A stretch of 64,000 bases of DNA from contig JAHUUI010000001.1 of NCBI GenBank assembly GCA_019218315.1, positions 541,722-605,721 of the forward strand, in the 5' to 3' direction. Shown piece after piece: positions 1 through 19,905 of the stretch. The notes below the pieces were generated by a model. It had not been told where the DNA came from, made no database searches, and saw only the letters and a program-made list of their open reading frames with translations. The first letter of the stretch is position 1, and every line of letters starts with the position of its first letter. Origin of the DNA: Cardiobacteriaceae bacterium TAE3-ERU3. Lineage in GTDB: Bacteria > Pseudomonadota > Gammaproteobacteria > Cardiobacteriales > Cardiobacteriaceae. The position numbers were made by a program, and so were the translations under genes.

Positions 1-393
1 AGTGAAAAATTAAAAATAAATGCATCTTGCATTATAGGTGATGATGCAAAGAGATATATTGATGAAGTTTTTTCTAAATTTAATCCCGAGAAAATAAGAG
101 GACATTTGAGCATTGGTAAAGATTCGATGTCTATTGATGCTGAAATTTACGATTTGAATTTTTCAAAAGTTTTGCCAAAAACCAAGGGTTATATATTTTT
201 TGAGCAAGATCTTTATAATAAAAATAGTGTTTATGTAATCGATGACTTGTCACTACTATACGACGTAATGCAAGAATGCTATGGAATGGAATACTTCGTT
301 TCTAATGAGAGTTTAGACTTTCTAATATCTGTCAATTGGTATGTCATACAATGCTTGGGTAAAGCACAGCAATATTTGCGTTTGCTCAATTAA
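1..393 (+). CDS. Hypothetical protein, 5' end outside the window
   Basis: The reading frame is open from base 1 to a TAA at 391-393 and gives 130 residues with no start that must be used, so the gene almost certainly begins left of the window. A TTG at 106 is an alternative internal start, but the codons before it read as normal protein. The product has no signal peptide or membrane segment and is rich in Asp, Ile, Tyr and Lys. I do not recognise the family. The DNA is clearly more AT-rich than the genes from 556 onward, which suggests foreign origin, as is common for toxin-immunity or defence genes. That function is speculation. Confidence 0.55.
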   Translation, partial: SEKLKINASCIIGDDAKRYIDEVFSKFNPEKIRGHLSIGKDSMSIDAEIYDLNFSKVLPKTKGYIFFEQDLYNKNSVYVIDDLSLLYDVMQECYGMEYFVSNESLDFLISVNWYVIQCLGKAQQYLRLLN

Positions 394-555
394 TTATTTG
401 TCCCTGAGCATAATAACTTCCAGGTATATGTTGCCCGCCTGGTTGGGGTATGGTGTTTTACCACCAATCTATTGATAGATTTGATAGTGGTTATAACAAT
501 ACTTAAATTGGTTTTAATACCTGCAAACTGTATAAAGTTTAGAGGTGGTTAGCTA
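394..555. other. Intergenic gap between convergent genes
   Basis: This AT-rich gap lies between the fragment ending at 393 and the 3' end of cpdA. It contains a short inverted repeat around 467-484 (AATCTA, four-base loop, TAGATT) inside a looser CCAC/GTGG pairing, but no T-run, so I do not call a terminator. No further gene is visible. Confidence 0.4.
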
Positions 556-1362
556 TCAATAAAATGGCTGTCGCTCGACGCTGAGATTCAGCGGGCGATA
601 ATGAGTTACGATTTCCGAGCCAAAGCAGGCGTGCAGCAGTACGCCCGGTGGCTCAAGGCGGTAGTGTGGCGGTGCATCAGCACTGAAATTCAAATCGACT
701 TGATGCGCGCAGCCCGGCGCGGTCATCACCAGTGTATTGGCCCACTGTGCCACGCAGTAGCGATGCACATGCCCACACAGCACGCGCTTGACGTGCGCGT
801 GACGGCTGACGATCGCCTCAAATTGCGCCAATCCGCCGCGTAGTGCAGCGCTGTCCATGTGGTCGATACCGATTTCGATAGGCGGCTGGTGTACGGCTAT
901 GACGGTTGGCTTTCCGGTGAGTTGTTGTAGCTGTTGCTCAAGCCAGTCGAGCTGGGCTGGATCAAGATAGCCCGCACCTTCGCCTTCGCGCAGTGCATCT
1001 AGCCCAATGATCGCCAATGGATAATCATTGACGCACCAATCAAGCTTGCCATCAGCGGGCAGGTAAGTATGTGAGGGCAACGCCTGACGCAGCAATTCGC
1101 GCCGGTCGTGGTTGCCAGTAATGACGTACACTGGCAAATCCAGCGCATCGAGCATCCCGCCGAGTTCGGCATAAACCGCCTCATTACCGCGCTGCACCAA
1201 ATCACCTGAAATCAGCAGTGCATCAATGCTCGGCGTGTGATTGCGCACGCTTTGCAGCGCCGCATACCACGGCGCCCGCGTATCAATGCGCCCGTACGCC
1301 AGTTTCTCAGGCACGGTTAAGTGTAAATCGCTGATTTGGGCGAGCAAGAAGTCCGGTGTCAT
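556..1362 (-). CDS. cpdA: 3',5'-cyclic AMP phosphodiesterase CpdA
   Basis: This 268-residue cytoplasmic class III metallophosphoesterase should hydrolyse cAMP to AMP and so lower Crp signalling. The metal-binding blocks appear in order: DLH near residue 14, GDL near residue 55, GNHD near residue 85, and GHVHR near residue 195, the usual D-x-H / GD / GNHD / GHxH set for two metal ions. The length matches E. coli CpdA (about 275 residues). I chose the ATG at 1362 because the TTG two codons upstream has no better ribosome site. The gene stands alone, divergent from the glycerophosphodiesterase. The family assignment is good; cAMP as the substrate is inferred from overall similarity. Confidence 0.85.
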   Translation of the reverse strand: MTPDFLLAQISDLHLTVPEKLAYGRIDTRAPWYAALQSVRNHTPSIDALLISGDLVQRGNEAVYAELGGMLDALDLPVYVITGNHDRRELLRQALPSHTYLPADGKLDWCVNDYPLAIIGLDALREGEGAGYLDPAQLDWLEQQLQQLTGKPTVIAVHQPPIEIGIDHMDSAALRGGLAQFEAIVSRHAHVKRVLCGHVHRYCVAQWANTLVMTAPGCAHQVDLNFSADAPPHYRLEPPGVLLHACFGSEIVTHYRPLNLSVERQPFY

Positions 1363-1368
1363 GATCAA

Positions 1369-1557
1369 CTCATATTAAAAAGTACTCATGATAGCTACGT
1401 AGTGTTTCCGCAATATAGCGTAAAGCGGATATATTTCTGCAACAGATCGCGATTACATTACGAATAAAAGCAGCATGCTCATAATTTGGTTACGCCATGC
1501 TTTGCCTGCTGTTGATACCTGTGATCTTGTGATTGTCCCCATAAACCGGAGCAAAAG
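1369..1557. promoter_or_regulatory. Divergent promoter region cpdA / glycerophosphodiesterase
   Basis: This 190-base divergent gap should hold promoters for both flanking genes. A CCGC...GCGG inverted repeat lies near 1410-1431. The plus-strand gene has a clear ribosome site, CCGGAG, six bases before ATG 1558. No Pho box was recognised, although the downstream enzyme belongs to phosphate and glycerol scavenging. Confidence 0.35.
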
Positions 1558-2766
1558 ATGAAAAAACATGTTGTATTAATGTTGGCGGGCTTGGCTAGTG
1601 CAGCCTATGCGGCAGATTATGCCCCAATCAAAGCCTATACTTATGGCCCGCGGCCGTTTTATCTGATTGATGATTTACAGGACGGGAAATTAAAAAATGA
1701 ATTGATGGCATGCAGCGGACAAACGCCTGAGCGCAGTATGTTCTCGATTGCCCATCGCGGCGCTCCGTTACAATTTCCCGAGCACACGCGCGAATCCTAC
1801 CTTGCCGCAGCACGTATGGGTGCGGGCATCATCGAGTGTGATGTGGCATTTACCAAGGATAAAGAGCTGGTTTGCCGTCATGCACAAAATGACCTGCACA
1901 CCACAACCAATATTCTCGCCACACCACTGGCAGAAAAGTGCAGCACACCATTCCAGCCGGCTGAATACGGCAGCGATGGTGAACTGGTCAAGGAAGCCAC
2001 AGCCGAATGCCGCACATCCGATATTACGCTGGCAGAGTTTAAAACCCTGAAAGGCAAAATGGATGCCGGTAACAAAGAGGCACGTACGGTCGAAGAATAC
2101 ATGGACGCAACGCCAAACTGGCGCACTGATCTTTACAGCCAAACCGGTACGCTAATGACGCATAAAGAGGCCATCGAACTGTTCAAAGCGCTTGGCGTGG
2201 CCATGACACCAGAACTGAAAGCACCAGTAGTGGATATGCCGTTTGACGGCTGGACGCAGCAAGATTATGCCCAAAAGCTGATTGGTGACTACAAGGAAGC
2301 CGGCGTTCCCCCTGAGCAGGTATTCCCGCAGTCATTTGATCTGGAAGATGTGCGCTACTGGATTGCCAATGAGGCGGCGTTCGGCAAGCAGGCGGTCTTT
2401 CTTGACGAAGAACTCGACACTGCGGCGCGAATTGAGCAAATGCCGGCGCTACGTGAAGAAGGCGTGAACTACCTCGCACCAGCCATGCCGCTGCTGGTCA
2501 GAAATGAGGACGGAAAAATTGTGCCTTCAGACTACGCAAAAGCCGCCAAGAATAATGACTTCAAGCTGATCTCATGGTCCATCGAGCGCTCCGGTCCATT
2601 GGCAAATGGCGGTGGCTGGTATTACACCAACATCAACGACATCACCAAAAAAGATGCCGACCTGCTCAAATTGCTCGACGTACTGGCGAAAGATGTTGGC
2701 ATTGTCGGCCTGTTCTCGGACTGGCCTGCAACCGTCACGTACTACGCCAATTGCAAGCATCTATAG
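1558..2766 (+). CDS. Secreted glycerophosphodiester phosphodiesterase (GlpQ-like)
   Basis: This 402-residue exported enzyme should cleave glycerophosphodiesters, products of phospholipid turnover, into glycerol-3-phosphate and an alcohol. An N-terminal signal peptide ([18 protein letters not shown]) ends at about residue 18. The GDPD catalytic core starts with the AHRG motif near residue 65, continues through the E-x-D pair in IIECDVAF near residue 100, and has a conserved His near residue 111. It is somewhat longer than E. coli GlpQ (358 residues), with extra sequence before the HRG motif. The start is fixed by the GGAG site and the signal peptide. It is monocistronic and ends in a strong terminator. 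Family certainty is high; the exact substrate is inferred. Confidence 0.85.
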
Positions 2767-2823
2767 TATTGTTTGGGAGCGTTATACGGGCATGACTGCT
2801 TATATAACGTTATACCTTTGATG

Positions 2824-2860
2824 ATGCCCATGATCTTTAATAGATCGTGGGCATTTTTTT
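2824..2860 (+). terminator. Rho-independent terminator after the glycerophosphodiesterase
   Basis: A perfect ATGCCCATGATCT / AGATCGTGGGCAT-type stem (one G-T pair) with a five-base loop is followed by a run of seven T. It lies 58 bases after the stop codon. Confidence 0.85.
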
Positions 2861-2941
2861 GCAAGCAACGTAAAGTTAGAACAAAAGCATAGTTATAATG
2901 ATATATTCGCTATTTCATTAACAATTATAAAGGATGACGCT

Positions 2942-4177
2942 ATGAATACAGCAAAGCGGGCCGGTACCATGATTGCCGGTACGTTTATCGTCACCGGTAC
3001 GGCTGTTGGTGCGGGCATGCTAGCGATTCCAACTTCAACTGCTGGGCTGTGGTTCTGGCGTTCGCTGCTTGTGCTTGGTGCGACGTGGTTGGTGATGATG
3101 ACGACCAGCTTGATGATTCTTGAAGCGAGCCACGGCTTTGCGCGAGATGCGCACTTCCCGACCATGGTTAAGCAGATTCTCGGCAAAGGATGGGCAGCGT
3201 TGAACAGCTTGTCGCTGGCGTTTGTGCTCTATATTTTGGTTTATGCCTACATCGCGGTTGGCGGCGACCTGACCGCGAGTAACCTCAGCGCAATAACCGC
3301 TATGGATACGCCGCTATGGATCGGGCAATTGCTGTTTTTTGCCGTGCTGGGGTTGGTGGTGTGGCTGTCGCATCGCTGGGTAGCGCGTTTTAATACGCTG
3401 ATTATCGGCGGTCTGTTGCTGACGTTTTTTATGGCGGCAGGTGGTTTGTTGCCGAGTATTCGCCATGACGTACTTTTACCCACGCAAAACAGCGGTGAAT
3501 GGCGCTACGTTTGGCTGGCGTTGCCGGTGGCGCTGACGTCGTTCGGCTACCACATTAACGTACCGACCTTGCGCATTTATTTACAAGACAACACCAAGCA
3601 AATTGCCTGGGCGCTGATCCTTGGCAGTTTTAGTGCGCTGGTGCTATACGTCATTTGGCAGACGGCAGTACTCGGCAATTTACCACGTGCGGATTTTGCG
3701 CCTGTGATTGCCACCGGCGGCCAAGCATCGGCATTGATTGATGCCGTCGCCCCGTATGCCAAATCAGCTTTGGTCACGCAATTGCTCGGCTTATTTACCT
3801 ACTTTGCGATCGCGACTTCTTTCCTCGGAGTGGCGCTGGGTTTATTCGAATTTATTAGCGACTTCTTCAGCTTTGGCAACAGTACCAGTGAGCGCCTGAA
3901 AACAGCATTGATTGCCTTGATTGCGCCACTTTTGGTCTGCTTGTGGCAACCGTATGGTTTCGTCAAGGCAATCGGCTTTGCCGGTATGGCGCTGACGATT
4001 TGGGGCGCGATTATTCCGGCCATGATGGTCTATAAGACACGCAAAAATGGCACCACCGGCTGCTTGCGCGTACCGGGTGGTAATGTGGTTATCGGATTGG
4101 TGATTGCCTTTGCCGTGCTCAATATCGTGGCGATGTTGCTTGCCCAGTTTGGCTGGGCACCAGTCTTTACAGGCTAA
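2942..4177 (+). CDS. Aromatic amino acid permease (HAAAP family, TyrP/Mtr type)
   Basis: This 411-residue inner-membrane protein belongs to the hydroxy/aromatic amino acid permease family, which imports tyrosine or tryptophan with protons. The N-terminus carries the family hallmark of a first helix ending in GTAVGAGMLAIP, near residues 20-31. About eleven hydrophobic segments follow, typical for the family (around 400-415 residues). A TATAAT element near 2893-2898 is a plausible -10, and the ribosome site AAGGATG precedes the ATG. The gene is convergent with the FNT gene, with only 20 bases between them. Whether the substrate is Tyr, Trp or both cannot be read from the sequence. Confidence 0.85.
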   Translation: MNTAKRAGTMIAGTFIVTGTAVGAGMLAIPTSTAGLWFWRSLLVLGATWLVMMTTSLMILEASHGFARDAHFPTMVKQILGKGWAALNSLSLAFVLYILVYAYIAVGGDLTASNLSAITAMDTPLWIGQLLFFAVLGLVVWLSHRWVARFNTLIIGGLLLTFFMAAGGLLPSIRHDVLLPTQNSGEWRYVWLALPVALTSFGYHINVPTLRIYLQDNTKQIAWALILGSFSALVLYVIWQTAVLGNLPRADFAPVIATGGQASALIDAVAPYAKSALVTQLLGLFTYFAIATSFLGVALGLFEFISDFFSFGNSTSERLKTALIALIAPLLVCLWQPYGFVKAIGFAGMALTIWGAIIPAMMVYKTRKNGTTGCLRVPGGNVVIGLVIAFAVLNIVAMLLAQFGWAPVFTG

Positions 4178-4197
4178 GAGTAAGGCTAGAAATAAAA

Positions 4198-5046
4198 CTA
4201 GGGATGGTGGTGGTTGTCGTTTAGATAGGCATAGAACAAGCCGATAATCAGGCCACCGCCGACGTAATTACCCCAGAACGAGAAAAAGACGTTCTTCAAC
4301 ATCGCCAGTGCATTCACAGCCTCCGGCGCGTAGAGCAGCGACGCGATAAAGTATGCTCCATTGGCGACAACGTGCTCGTAGCCCATAAAGGCGAAGATCA
4401 TGATGCCAAACATCATGATGAAAGTTTTCGCCATCGTGTCGCGCGTCTGCATCGCGATGACGACTGCATTATTAATAAAGAAATTGGCAAAGATGCCTTT
4501 GGAGAAAATCGACCACGCAGTGGAATCAACGCTTTTGGCGTTGCTGATATCGACCAACATTTGCACTTCCTCCGGCCGTACGATGTGCGCACCGGTCATG
4601 AGCAGAAATACAACCAGCATACCGAGGTAGTTCCCGGCCAGACACAGCAGCCATATTTTCATCGACTTGGCGATGGTGATTTTGCGGTAATAAATGCCGA
4701 CGGTGAAGTACATAAAGTTACTGGTCAGCAGCTCGGAGTTGGTGAACATAATCATCACCAGCGCAAAGCTAAAGCCATAAGAAGCGACCAGCATGGTGAC
4801 ACCAAGATTCACCTCAGGCAGCATTTCAGACTTGATACGCAAGGTAAACACAGTAATCACCGCAACGATAAAGCCCGCCATCATGGCGCGGCAAAGATAG
4901 CGGTAGCGGTAACTGTCCTTGAGGATATTTTTGGTCTCAATGGTATAGAGAATTTGCTGCATCAGCTCGCGTCCGTAAAAAACGCGCTCCCATTGAACGT
5001 TTTTTTGTTCAACCTTTTGCTCTGGCCCAGATGGCTTGGTATCCAT
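4198..5046 (-). CDS. Formate/nitrite transporter (FNT) family channel
   Basis: This 282-residue inner-membrane protein of the FNT family forms pentameric channels for small monovalent anions such as formate, nitrite or hydrosulfide. Family signatures are GYEHVVAN near residue 225 (FNT consensus G-x-E-H-x-x-A-N) and a late N-Y-V-G-G-G segment. It has six hydrophobic segments after a hydrophilic N-terminus of about 50 residues, longer than in FocA and more like YfdC-type members. I chose the ATG at 5046 because AAGGGA lies seven bases upstream; a start at 5091 would run into the preceding gene. It probably forms an operon with the exchanger upstream (34-base gap). The transported ion is unknown. 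Confidence 0.8.
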   Translation of the reverse strand: MDTKPSGPEQKVEQKNVQWERVFYGRELMQQILYTIETKNILKDSYRYRYLCRAMMAGFIVAVITVFTLRIKSEMLPEVNLGVTMLVASYGFSFALVMIMFTNSELLTSNFMYFTVGIYYRKITIAKSMKIWLLCLAGNYLGMLVVFLLMTGAHIVRPEEVQMLVDISNAKSVDSTAWSIFSKGIFANFFINNAVVIAMQTRDTMAKTFIMMFGIMIFAFMGYEHVVANGAYFIASLLYAPEAVNALAMLKNVFFSFWGNYVGGGLIIGLFYAYLNDNHHHP

Positions 5047-5080
5047 GCAGCTATCCCTTGTTTTATTTATAGATATAGGG

Positions 5081-6742
5081 TTATCCACCACTTGTCCACA
5101 GGATCAAAGTGATGATCTGCGGACTCATGATGCGCAAGAACATCACCAGTGGATAGACGGTTACATACGACAATACCGCCGCACCGCTTTCTTCGTGCAT
5201 GGCATTGGCAAAGGCAAGTGCAGGAGGGTCAGTTGCCGAGCCTGCAAGCAGGCCGCAGATGGTCAAGTAGTTCATGTGTGCATAACGCCACGCAACAATC
5301 CCCACAATCATCAATGGTAACAAGGTGATAAACATCGCATATACCATCCATTGCAGACCATCGCCATGCAACAGGGTATGGACAAACTCACCACCAGATT
5401 TAAGCCCGACCACGGCAAGGAACAGCACGATACCCAGCTCACGCAAAGCGAGGTTGGCAGATGGTGGCATGAACCAATACAGGCTGCCGATACTGCCAAT
5501 CCGCCCAAGTAATAGGGCAACAATCAGCGGCCCACCAGCGAGCCCAAGCTTGAGCGCAACCGGGAAGCCGGGAACGTTAAGCGGCAATGAGCCGAGCAAA
5601 ACCCCCAAGCCAATACCGATAAAAATGGGCAGCATTTGTACCTGCTGGAGCTTTTGCTGCACGTTGCCGATAATGGCAATTACGGCATTAATGGCATCTT
5701 CCTTACCGACGAGGTTAAGTACGTCACCAAATTGCAGCGTCGTCTGCGCGCCGGGTACCAACTCGACACCAGTACGGTTCAGGCGCGAAATCACCACATC
5801 GTATTTTTCCGTAATCCGCAGTTCCTGAATTTTCTTGCCAAGTACTTTTTCATTGGTCACCACCACACGCACAGAGCGAAATTCTGTGCCGCGTGTACTC
5901 AGCGACACGTTAACCTCCTCACCGACCACCAGCATCGCCTTGCGTAAGTCCTCAGGATCACCGACGACGTGTAGCAAATCACCGAGTTCAAGTACGGTGT
6001 TGTCCTTAGGTACGATAAACGTCTCACCACGGCGCAAGCGCGAACAGACGACGTTGTGGTGATCAAAGATCGGCAGTTCATCGACACGGTGACCATGCAA
6101 ATTGGGATTGGTCACCTTCATATTCATTGAGGTGAGCTTGGCATTATCACGCCGGTTACTGCGTGAAAAAAGCGCCGCTTGCTGAGAAATTGAGATTTGG
6201 AAAATTGCCCGAATGAGCCACATCGAGAGGATGATGCCAAAAATACCGAATGGATAGGCCATCGCATACGCCGCCCCCATCGTCGCTGTACTGTCCGCCA
6301 CGCCGAGTTCGCTGAGCATTTGCTGCCCAGCCCCAAGCGCTGGAGTATTGGTCACCGCACCTGCGTAAATGCCGAGAATTTCCGGTAAGGAAATATCAAA
6401 GAAATAGTGAAATCCGATGACCAGCAGTGTACTGATCAATACTATCGACGCAGCAAAAAGATTAAGCTTGAGCCCAGACTGGCGCAGCGATGAGAAAAAC
6501 CCCGGCCCGACCTGTATACCGATGGTATAGACAAACAAAATCAGCCCAAATTCCTGCAAAAACGTCAGAATTTCATGGTCAAGCTCAATATTGAATTCCT
6601 GCAAAAAATGAGCGACAAAAATACCGCCAAACAACACCCCGCCAACGCCAATACTGACGCGGCGAAACTTAATATTACCCAACCACAGCCCCAATACCGC
6701 TACCAGCGACAAAATGGCAAATGTCAGTGCGATTTTACTCAT
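5081..6742 (-). CDS. yidE: YidE-type transporter of the aspartate:alanine exchanger family
   Basis: This 553-residue inner-membrane protein has exactly the length of E. coli YidE. It contains two blocks of membrane helices (about residues 1-175 and 375-553) around a cytoplasmic region with two TrkA-C (RCK-C) domains at about residues 205-365, the layout of AspT/YidE/YbjL exchangers. The two RCK-C repeats are visible as paired segments such as [15 protein letters not shown] and [15 protein letters not shown]. The substrate of YidE proteins is not established. It is divergent from betB across a 394-base gap and is followed on the same strand by the FNT gene. Confidence 0.85.
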
Positions 6743-17841: not shown

Positions 17842-19905
17842 ATGACTTTTATCAGGAAATTGCCGCTTGCGATGGCGTGTGCATTGGGTTTGGCGGCTGC
17901 GCCCGTGTGTGCCGAGACAACTTTGTATGGAACACTTGATGGCTCAGAGAATCTCGAGCGACTCAATCAAGCAGAACAGCAGAAATGGCTAATGGATCAT
18001 TTACCCGACAGCACCGATGCGTATGTGCGCATTCCAGCGTTGCCATCGCTACTACTAACCGATCCAAAGGATCAACCCGAAGCGCTGGATAAGGCGTGGG
18101 CGCAGGTGTATCCGGCGTTAATTGACTGGTGGCTGCAAGGGATGCCGGAAGAAGCACGGCCGTTGTTGCGGGTGATGGCAGAACAAGCCGCATCACCGCT
18201 GGAAGTGGCGCTGATTGACGTAATGTCGGGGCAGCCGCAGATACGTGCTTCTGTGCTGCTGAACGGGCAAAATGCGGCAGATGTCGATGCGATGCTTGCC
18301 GCCGTATTCAAGGGTAGCCCGTTTGAAGTGCGTAGTGATCAAGCCGGTACGGGTACACTGTTTGAACGTGGCAAGCAGGTGGCTGCTTACCGCTTTGACG
18401 CAGAGAGTGGTCGCTTGCTGTTTATGCTGGATAAAAAGAACGCACCGGATTGGCAATGGACGCAGCAGACAACCAATGCACAACTTCAGGCGCAACTCTA
18501 CGCGCTGCAAGGCGATACGGGAAATCTATTTGTGTGGGTGAAAAACCAGCCGCAGGCGGCCATGATAGCGGCGGTAGAGCAGCCTATGCTCGCGGCATTG
18601 CTGTTGAAGGATTTGCAAAGCCTGTCGCTGGCAAGTAGCAGTGATAGTGATGGTTACGCGGCATGGCTGGCGCTGGATATGCCGCAAAGGACAGGGCTAC
18701 GTTTGCTGTTGCCGAGCCATGATGGCAGCGATTTATCGCTAATGACGCACGGTCAGCCGCAGTGGGCGATGCTGTGGTCGCCGCCGCCAGCAGAGGACAT
18801 GACGCAGTTTATGCAGACCATTGGCAAAGGCAACGATTATCAGTCGTTCAAGCAGGTGCTCGCGGACAAACACAATATTGATGTGGACGTGCTGCTCAAT
18901 GCAGCGGCGACGCAATGGCTGATGTTTGCTGATGATAACGGACAAGTCACAGCCATCGACGCGGCAACTGAACCGATGCTCAATGACGCGATCGAGATGC
19001 TGAAAAAAGCCGGTTGGATTACTGCAGATGAAGACGTTGGGCACGGTATCCGCCATTTGACGGTCAGCAACAAACTGTTTGCTGACATGGAAGAAGAAAG
19101 CAAACCTGTGCCGCGTTTGCTACAGGCATTGCTCAGCGCACCCAATGATTTTTATCTCAAAAACGAGGGCGACTATTTGCTGGTTTCAAGCTTGCCGCAG
19201 CCGTTGATGGCGCGCGAACAAAGCACTGCGGATACGTCGATGCAGGATTGGCTGAGCGAGGCCGGTGTCGATGTGCAAAAAAGCAGCTTTGCCTATGTGA
19301 TGCCGGTGCAGGATTTATCCCAGCAGCATTACTATGGCACTTTGCATTATTTGCAGCAGATGGGGCACGTGGCTGGTAAGCCGGTCAATCTCACTGAGAT
19401 GCCAACAGCGCAGGAATTGGCATTGCCGTCGTCCGGTCTACTCACTTTTGATGTGGTCAACGAGGATAATGCGCTGGCGTTTACCCTGCACTCACCACAC
19501 GACCTCACTGATTGGCTCTACACCGGTAGCGGCAATATGACCACAGTTGCCACCGCCGGCATTCTGGCGGCGATTGCGATTCCGGCGTATCAGGATTACG
19601 TGATGCGCAGCGAGGCGATGAGTGCTTATGTCGCGGCATATAACGCATTGCAAACGGCTGGAACGGACAAGCCTGTTTCACAACTATCAGCAGCAGAAAA
19701 GCAGCAGATTGTGCAGGTGATACAACATGTCCGCATCGTCAAGGATGTAGTCTTTGAAGATGATGACATTGCGTTGCTCCTCGGCGGGTCATTTAACGAT
19801 ACGTGGATGACGGTGACACGCCGCAAGCAAGGTGGCGATAAACAATACCGTTGTTCATTCGACACTGTGCAATACGAGCGCTTTTTGCCGTCTGCTTGCG
19901 ATTAA
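17842..19905 (+). CDS. Exported 687-residue protein with a C-terminal pilin-like segment
   Basis: ATG 17842 has AAGGA seven bases upstream and starts a signal peptide cleaved after about residue 25 (VCA). Residues 30-560 are hydrophilic and soluble-looking, with an early DAYVRIPALPSLL block somewhat like DUF3352-type proteins. At about residues 570-590 the sequence AGILAAIAIPAYQDYV appears, nearly identical to the N-terminal helix core of type IV pilins, followed by about 100 residues ending in a Cys pair (YRCSFD...SACD) like a pilin disulfide loop. The prepilin cleavage site (G-F-T-L-I-E) is missing. This suggests a pilin fused behind an exported domain. The function is unknown; membrane anchoring by that helix is inference. 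Confidence 0.7.
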   Translation: MTFIRKLPLAMACALGLAAAPVCAETTLYGTLDGSENLERLNQAEQQKWLMDHLPDSTDAYVRIPALPSLLLTDPKDQPEALDKAWAQVYPALIDWWLQGMPEEARPLLRVMAEQAASPLEVALIDVMSGQPQIRASVLLNGQNAADVDAMLAAVFKGSPFEVRSDQAGTGTLFERGKQVAAYRFDAESGRLLFMLDKKNAPDWQWTQQTTNAQLQAQLYALQGDTGNLFVWVKNQPQAAMIAAVEQPMLAALLLKDLQSLSLASSSDSDGYAAWLALDMPQRTGLRLLLPSHDGSDLSLMTHGQPQWAMLWSPPPAEDMTQFMQTIGKGNDYQSFKQVLADKHNIDVDVLLNAAATQWLMFADDNGQVTAIDAATEPMLNDAIEMLKKAGWITADEDVGHGIRHLTVSNKLFADMEEESKPVPRLLQALLSAPNDFYLKNEGDYLLVSSLPQPLMAREQSTADTSMQDWLSEAGVDVQKSSFAYVMPVQDLSQQHYYGTLHYLQQMGHVAGKPVNLTEMPTAQELALPSSGLLTFDVVNEDNALAFTLHSPHDLTDWLYTGSGNMTTVATAGILAAIAIPAYQDYVMRSEAMSAYVAAYNALQTAGTDKPVSQLSAAEKQQIVQVIQHVRIVKDVVFEDDDIALLLGGSFNDTWMTVTRRKQGGDKQYRCSFDTVQYERFLPSACD

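What the first reader, a model, noticed from the sequence alone, without database searches (positions are those of the whole stretch)
19539..19905. Type IV pilin helix and disulfide loop embedded at the C-terminus of an exported 687-residue protein
AGILAAIAIPAYQDYV near residues 572-587 is almost the pilin N-terminal helix core, followed by about 100 residues with a terminal Cys pair, but no prepilin cleavage site is present. A signal peptide and 540 soluble residues precede it. This looks like a gene fusion that captured a pilin and turned it into a membrane-tethered or receptor-like protein.
Basis: partly seen in the sequence, partly recalled or inferred. Interest (0 to 1): 0.65.

Follow-up and report, generated by a model that had tools for sequence, protein, structure and literature searches.

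The report
Exported protein with stemless pilin tail
A conserved but unnamed family of exported bacterial proteins carries, at its end, a type IV pilin (the building block of bacterial grappling-hook fibres) that has lost the front third of its stem, so it probably cannot join a fibre and is more likely to bind fibre parts or a membrane from inside the cell envelope.

Summary
The fusion is real. window:17842-19905 (687 aa) has a type-I signal peptide, a ~510-residue domain with no Pfam or NCBIfam match, and a C-terminal pilin domain (566-687). A family profile matches solved PilE at E 6e-27, and PF00114 matches 10 of 13 members. Two AlphaFold models show one long helix, four strands and the terminal Cys pair, as in pilins. 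Their N-part most resembles TP0453, a Treponema outer-membrane-associated, lipid-carrier-like lipoprotein.

It is not a local accident. 14 of 369 evenly drawn Gammaproteobacteria carry it, and a search with the N-domain alone finds the same 14 proteins. Many members are lipoproteins. The "anchor helix" reading is weak: pilin positions 1-13 are eroded (Glu5 0/25; conservation 0.98/0.92 in true pilins against 0.30/0.38 here), while 14-27 (GILAAIAIPAYQDY) is the most conserved stretch of the protein. Hydrophobicity is low, and the invariant Cys pair implies that the head lies in the periplasm beside the N-domain. I read it as a periplasmic, non-polymerisable pilin module on a lipid-carrier-like domain. 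Its partner (pilus machinery, membrane leaflet or its own N-domain) is unknown.

The parts
17842..19905 (+). whole gene, 687 aa
   Evidence: full-length homologues
17842..17913 (+). type-I signal peptide, residues 1-24 (by eye, ends APVCA)
   Evidence: sequence; the homologous N-termini are SPI signals or lipobox signals such as LLAGC, LTGC, LGAC, LLAC
17974..19494 (+). N-terminal exported domain, residues 45-551; no Pfam/NCBIfam family; its first part (plus the last strands) matches the TP0453 fold in the model
   Evidence: second model
19495..19536 (+). G/S/N-rich linker, residues 552-565, in place of pilin leader and residues 1-6
19537..19656 (+). pilin alpha-1 helix, residues 566-605 (pilin positions 7-46), one continuous helix in the model (N-terminal third of low confidence)
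19558..19599 (+). GILAAIAIPAYQDY, residues 573-586 (pilin positions 14-27): most conserved 14 residues of the whole family
19657..19902 (+). pilin globular head, residues 606-687, four beta strands
   Evidence: PilE 5vxx Z 7.4, rmsd 3.3, 105 residues
19852..19854 (+). Cys671, first Cys of the pilin C-terminal disulfide loop
   Evidence: a Cys pair in all 28 members with a head
19897..19899 (+). Cys686, second Cys of the loop

Best explanation
The gene encodes a periplasmic (in many relatives lipid-anchored) two-part protein: an exported domain whose predicted fold resembles the membrane-associated lipid-carrier-like lipoprotein TP0453, followed by a pilin domain whose processing site, Glu5 and membrane-spanning part (pilin positions 1-13) are eroded, while the membrane-surface part of the stem (14-30), the head and the disulfide are kept. 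Shown by computation: fusion, homology, fold, the pattern of retention, spread. Inferred: both domains lie in the periplasm, so the helix is not a membrane anchor, and the protein cannot be cleaved by PilD or polymerised. Most likely mechanism (inferred): the protein uses the retained helix surface, which in pili contacts neighbouring subunits, to dock from the periplasmic side onto pilins, minor pilins or another pilin-binding part of the type IV pilus apparatus, as a tethered pilin mimic that assists, holds or limits pilus assembly, with the TP0453-like domain placing it at a membrane.
For: Homology and fold. Selective retention: pilin positions 1-6 conserved 0.98 in 45 true pilins against 0.30 in 25 fusions, 7-13 0.92 against 0.38, 14-27 0.88 against 0.80; Glu5 in 0 of 25. 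573-586 is the best-conserved 14-mer of the whole protein (0.81; best elsewhere 0.59). A Cys pair in all 28 heads, while 23 of 29 mature N-domains have no Cys at all. Low hydrophobicity of the segment. Purifying selection on both parts in most close pairs (dN/dS about 0.09-0.3). N-domain not found without the pilin part in 369 genomes (14 of 14). Carriers have type IV pili: PilQ in 32/32 genomes of the order and 13/14 carriers in the class sample.
Against: Type IV pili are common in the class (PilQ 309/369), so co-occurrence proves nothing. No pilus genes lie beside any copy examined with 6 kb flanks. One lineage (same order, genus g8) has kept PilQ, PilT and pilins but lost the pilin head of this protein, and Saccharospirillum keeps only the helix, so the head is dispensable there. 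The helix and its junction have pLDDT < 50, so packing of the helix on its own N-domain is not excluded. The TP0453 match is by fold only, with high rmsd (5.2-7.0).
Confidence: 0.4

Rival explanations
1. Self-contained envelope protein: the retained pilin helix packs into the hydrophobic cavity of the protein's own TP0453-like domain, or dips into the periplasmic leaflet of a membrane as an amphipathic anchor, as TP0453 helices do; the head is a structural cap. No pilus partner.
For: N-part fold match to TP0453, which is membrane-associated, has amphipathic helices and is a proposed lipid carrier (PMC5421087). The helix is kept where the head is lost (Saccharospirillum L046). No pilus-gene neighbours.
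Against: Retention of pilin-specific residues (P22, A23, Y24, D26, Y27, R30 at 0.92-1.00) is more than a generic amphipathic or cavity-filling helix needs, and the head with its disulfide is retained in nearly all lineages.
Confidence: 0.33
2. Minor pilin of a new kind: the protein is incorporated in the pilus (for instance at the tip) with a large domain at the N-terminal end of its stem.
For: Pilin fold and conserved subunit-contact segment. Tip subunits of known filaments may lack Glu5 (PMC10191384), and large grafted tip domains are known (CpaL PMC12607857, ComZ PMC6561018).
Against: Those proteins keep the class III signal and put the extra domain in or after the head. Here the class III signal is replaced by a Sec or lipoprotein signal, positions 1-13 are eroded, and a 510-residue domain would sit at the end of the helix that must enter the filament core.
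Confidence: 0.1
3. One reading: single-pass membrane receptor anchored by the pilin helix, N-domain outside and pilin head in the cytoplasm.
For: About 16 weakly hydrophobic residues; 20 of 29 members exceed a Kyte-Doolittle mean of 1.6.
Against: Low hydrophobicity relative to pilins; invariant Cys pair, expected only in an oxidising compartment; conservation lies in the membrane-surface part, not in the spanning part; many members already have a lipid anchor.
Confidence: 0.1
4. Relic: an ancient read-through fusion whose pilin tail now has little function.
For: The head is lost in genus g8 and in Saccharospirillum.
Against: The tail segment is the most conserved part of the protein over many families and both parts are mostly under purifying selection.
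Confidence: 0.05

Closest known systems
Type IVa major pilins (PilE/PilA, Pfam PF00114)
   Same: sequence homology over alpha-1 positions 7-30 and the head, four-stranded sheet, C-terminal disulfide loop
   Different: no class III signal, no Glu5, eroded positions 1-13, exported N-terminal 510-residue domain in front
Modular pilins (S. sanguinis PilB/PilC, PMC10191384; CpaL, PMC12607857; ComZ, PMC6561018)
   Same: pilin module plus a large unrelated domain
   Different: in those the extra domain follows or interrupts the head and the prepilin signal is kept; here the order is reversed and the prepilin signal replaced by a Sec or lipoprotein signal
DUF805-pilin fusions seen here in the same order (L151, L152)
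   Same: uncleaved pilin domain at the C-terminus of another protein
   Different: a full hydrophobic helix precedes PAYQDY and the partner is a multi-pass membrane domain, so normal pilin topology is possible
TP0453 of Treponema pallidum (PDB 3k8g-3k8j)
   Same: best fold match of the N-part in both models (Foldseek E 2.9e-6 and 1.8e-3; Z 10.5 and 7.0); envelope lipoprotein as in many relatives
   Different: no sequence-level match in the PDB search, twice the size, no pilin part in TP0453

Membership tests
Type IV pilins (functional subunits) | class III signal with prepilin peptidase site before F1 | tested here: not met
   no such site; linker LTDWLYTGSGN precedes the helix; F1 equivalent in 3/25 members
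Type IV pilins (functional subunits) | Glu5 | tested here: not met
   0 of 25 members
Type IV pilins (functional subunits) | strongly hydrophobic alpha-1N, positions 1-24 | tested here: not met
   flat-scale best 19-mer +3.3 against -2.4 in 146 pilins
Type IV pilins (functional subunits) | pilin domain homology (PF00114) | tested here: met
   10 of 13 family members, best 2.4e-14; L043, L044, L045 above cut-off; the window member itself only through PDB pilins and the family profile
Type IV pilins (functional subunits) | long alpha-1 plus four-stranded sheet with C-terminal disulfide loop | tested here: met
   models; PilE Z 7.4, PA pilin Z 6.9 rmsd 2.6; Cys pair in 28/28 heads
Type IV pilins (functional subunits) | incorporation into a filament | not testable with these tools
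   needs mass spectrometry of pili
TP0453-like lipoproteins | alpha/beta/alpha fold | tested here: met
   fold match of two independent models, moderate quality
TP0453-like lipoproteins | lipobox | tested here: not met
   window member has a type-I signal peptide; about half of the relatives have a lipobox
TP0453-like lipoproteins | membrane insertion and lipid carriage | not testable with these tools
   biochemistry needed
DUF3352 | match to the Pfam model | tested here: not met
   no hit at E<=10 for P0001 and none at E<=0.01 in 13 members

The most novel reading that the evidence does not exclude
A class of periplasmic, non-polymerisable pilin mimics: an envelope protein that presents the subunit-contact surface of a pilin in order to hold, cap or sense pilins, linking the state of the envelope (through a lipid-carrier-like domain) to type IV pilus assembly.
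Probability: 0.3. Interest if true: 0.8.

Novelty: new variant of a known kind. Interest (0 to 1): 0.6.

Why it matters
Known modular pilins keep the prepilin front end and add domains behind it. This family does the reverse in many Gammaproteobacteria: it discards the part of the stem needed for processing and membrane residence and keeps, under stronger constraint than any other part of the protein, the segment that lies at the membrane surface and meets neighbouring subunits in a pilus. If that segment binds pilins, it is a natural non-assembling pilin that could show what recognises pilins before they enter the fibre, which can be tested with one deletion and one pull-down. The N-terminal domain has no entry in Pfam or NCBIfam.

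Tried and rejected
(1) Chance resemblance: rejected. (2) Two genes or internal translation start at Met566: the Met is present in only about 0.3 of members, and there is no prepilin signal. (3) DUF3352: no hit. (4) Conserved neighbourhood: none with 6 kb flanks; the window copy lies between clpB and mgtE. (5) T4P co-occurrence as a test: uninformative, since PilQ is in 309/369 genomes of the class. (6) Several fusion events: trees show the pilin parts mostly apart from true pilins; the group-f2 members sit beside DUF805-pilin fusions of their own family (SH-aLRT 94), but a single origin is not rejected (p-AU 0.107; 128 columns, weak). (7) Plasmid copies: none. (8) Origin of the fusion from a silent pilin cassette that starts at position 14: not favoured, as residual homology reaches M7/A11. 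(9) Two DNA references were given in the wrong frame at first. (10) The PAYQDY pattern scan selects for that motif, so the conservation statistics leave out its loci; the means include four of them. (11) The Luthra 2011 paper on TP0453 is not held; TP0453 facts come from the review PMC5421087.

Full report
What is there. window:17842-19905 encodes 687 residues. Residues 1-24 look like a type-I signal peptide. Residues 566-687 are a pilin: phmmer finds PDB pilins at E 2.3e-5 over 566-607. A profile of 13 homologues finds gonococcal PilE at 6.2e-27 and free-standing pilins in other genomes down to 4.9e-38. Pfam Pilin PF00114 matches 10 of 13 relatives and the Kangiella, Dyella and MAG homologues above its cut-off, though not the window member itself. 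No Pfam or NCBIfam model matches the N-terminal ~540 residues.

The family. Relatives with the same layout occur in several genera of the window's family and in a second family of the order, in named Kangiella, Dyella, Saccharospirillum and Cardiobacterium genomes, and in 14 of 369 genomes drawn evenly from the class. A search with the N-domain alone found the same 14 proteins and no copy without the pilin part; among 398 genomes of the phylum only two already known carriers matched. Exceptions lie in one genus of the order (g8, L012-L014 and L018), where the protein stops after a degenerate helix, and in Saccharospirillum, where an intact helix is followed by a stop. About half of the members are lipoproteins by their lipobox. 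No conserved neighbours were seen.

Structure. AlphaFold of the window protein with six homologues (pLDDT 63.9, pTM 0.58) shows one helix 566-605 and strands at 633-673. A second model from Kangiella (pLDDT 66.8, pTM 0.62) agrees. Pilins match the C-part (PilE Z 7.4, rmsd 3.3, 105 residues; P. aeruginosa pilin Z 6.9, rmsd 2.6, 110 residues). TP0453 is the best Foldseek match of the N-part in both (E 2.9e-6 and 1.8e-3; Z 10.5 and 7.0). TP0453 is described as attached to the inner face of the Treponema outer membrane, with membrane-inserting amphipathic helices, and as a proposed lipid carrier (PMC5421087). Model confidence is moderate and shallow alignments were used; the fold match does not prove the function.

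Which part of the pilin is kept. In 45 true pilins positions 1-6, 7-13 and 14-27 have mean conservation 0.98, 0.92 and 0.88. In 25 fusions they have 0.30, 0.38 and 0.80, with Glu5 in none. In the whole fusion family the 14 residues 573-586 are the most conserved window (0.81; next best region 0.59). The segment is far less hydrophobic than in pilins. So the processing site and the membrane-spanning part have been given up and the membrane-surface part kept. The terminal Cys pair is present in all 28 heads, whereas 23 of 29 mature N-domains have no Cys; a disulfide needs the periplasm, and the N-domain is exported, so both domains should be on the same side and the helix should not cross the membrane. 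This is an inference; it has not been measured. Close pairs show purifying selection on both parts in four of five cases.

How it may work. A pilin without positions 1-13 and with a large domain at that end cannot be a PilD substrate and is unlikely to enter a filament (established knowledge of type IV pili, PMC10191384). The retained surface is the one that meets other subunits. The best reading is a periplasmic pilin mimic on a membrane-associated carrier-like domain that touches the pilus apparatus; the closest rival is that the helix serves the protein's own N-domain or a membrane leaflet. Nothing here shows the partner.

Relation to known things. Modular pilins (PMC10191384), CpaL (PMC12607857) and ComZ (PMC6561018) keep the prepilin signal and carry extra domains in or behind the head. 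Here the order is reversed. DUF805-pilin proteins in the same order are another uncleaved pilin fusion, but with a full membrane helix. I found no paper on this family in the held library, which is not exhaustive.

Phylogeny. Most fusion pilin domains fall outside the free pilins; those of family f2 group with DUF805-pilin fusions of the same family, which may mean exchange of the module. One origin is not rejected (p-AU 0.107).

Noticed in passing
L157 (own genome G000:C1:154000-161000), 2036-4863; L158 (G006:C25), 1-5400: Pilin loci of two genera hold N-terminally truncated, presumably silent pilin cassettes that start at one point (AACAGTATCCTCGC, codons S-I-L-A) matching the expressed gene at GGTATCCTCGC (G14-I-L-A), in inverted orientation around an IS110/Piv-like recombinase gene (L157 3069-4037; inverted arms 2931-3008 and 4356-4433). 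It resembles Piv pilin inversion of Moraxella; IS110 enzymes are guided by bridge RNAs (PMC11208160), which makes it worth a look of its own.
   Followed up: partly
L151:473-1606:+, L152:349-1395:+ (same order, family f2): DUF805 membrane domain fused to an uncleaved pilin domain (PF00114 and PF05656 both above cut-off); a second kind of pilin fusion.
   Followed up: partly
L080 (Stenotrophomonas nematodicola, 289 aa frame), L096 (Thiospirillum jenense, 430 aa frame): Further long frames with a pilin domain behind other sequence and a full hydrophobic helix.
   Followed up: no
L153-L156: Weak pilin-head matches at the C-terminus of 266-430 aa frames in the same order, with divergent helices (SQPLYEKY, GKPFYDDY, GLPAYQLY); possibly still more diverged pilin fusions.
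   Followed up: no
L012, L013, L014, L018 (genus g8): Members that end soon after the hydrophobic segment and have lost the pilin head; their genomes have shortened PilQ frames (about 470-510 aa) and diverged PilT, but still one pilin each in most.
   Followed up: partly
window:19917-19957: Strong hairpin just behind the stop codon that could end transcription; no consensus sigma-70 promoter found upstream.
   Followed up: no
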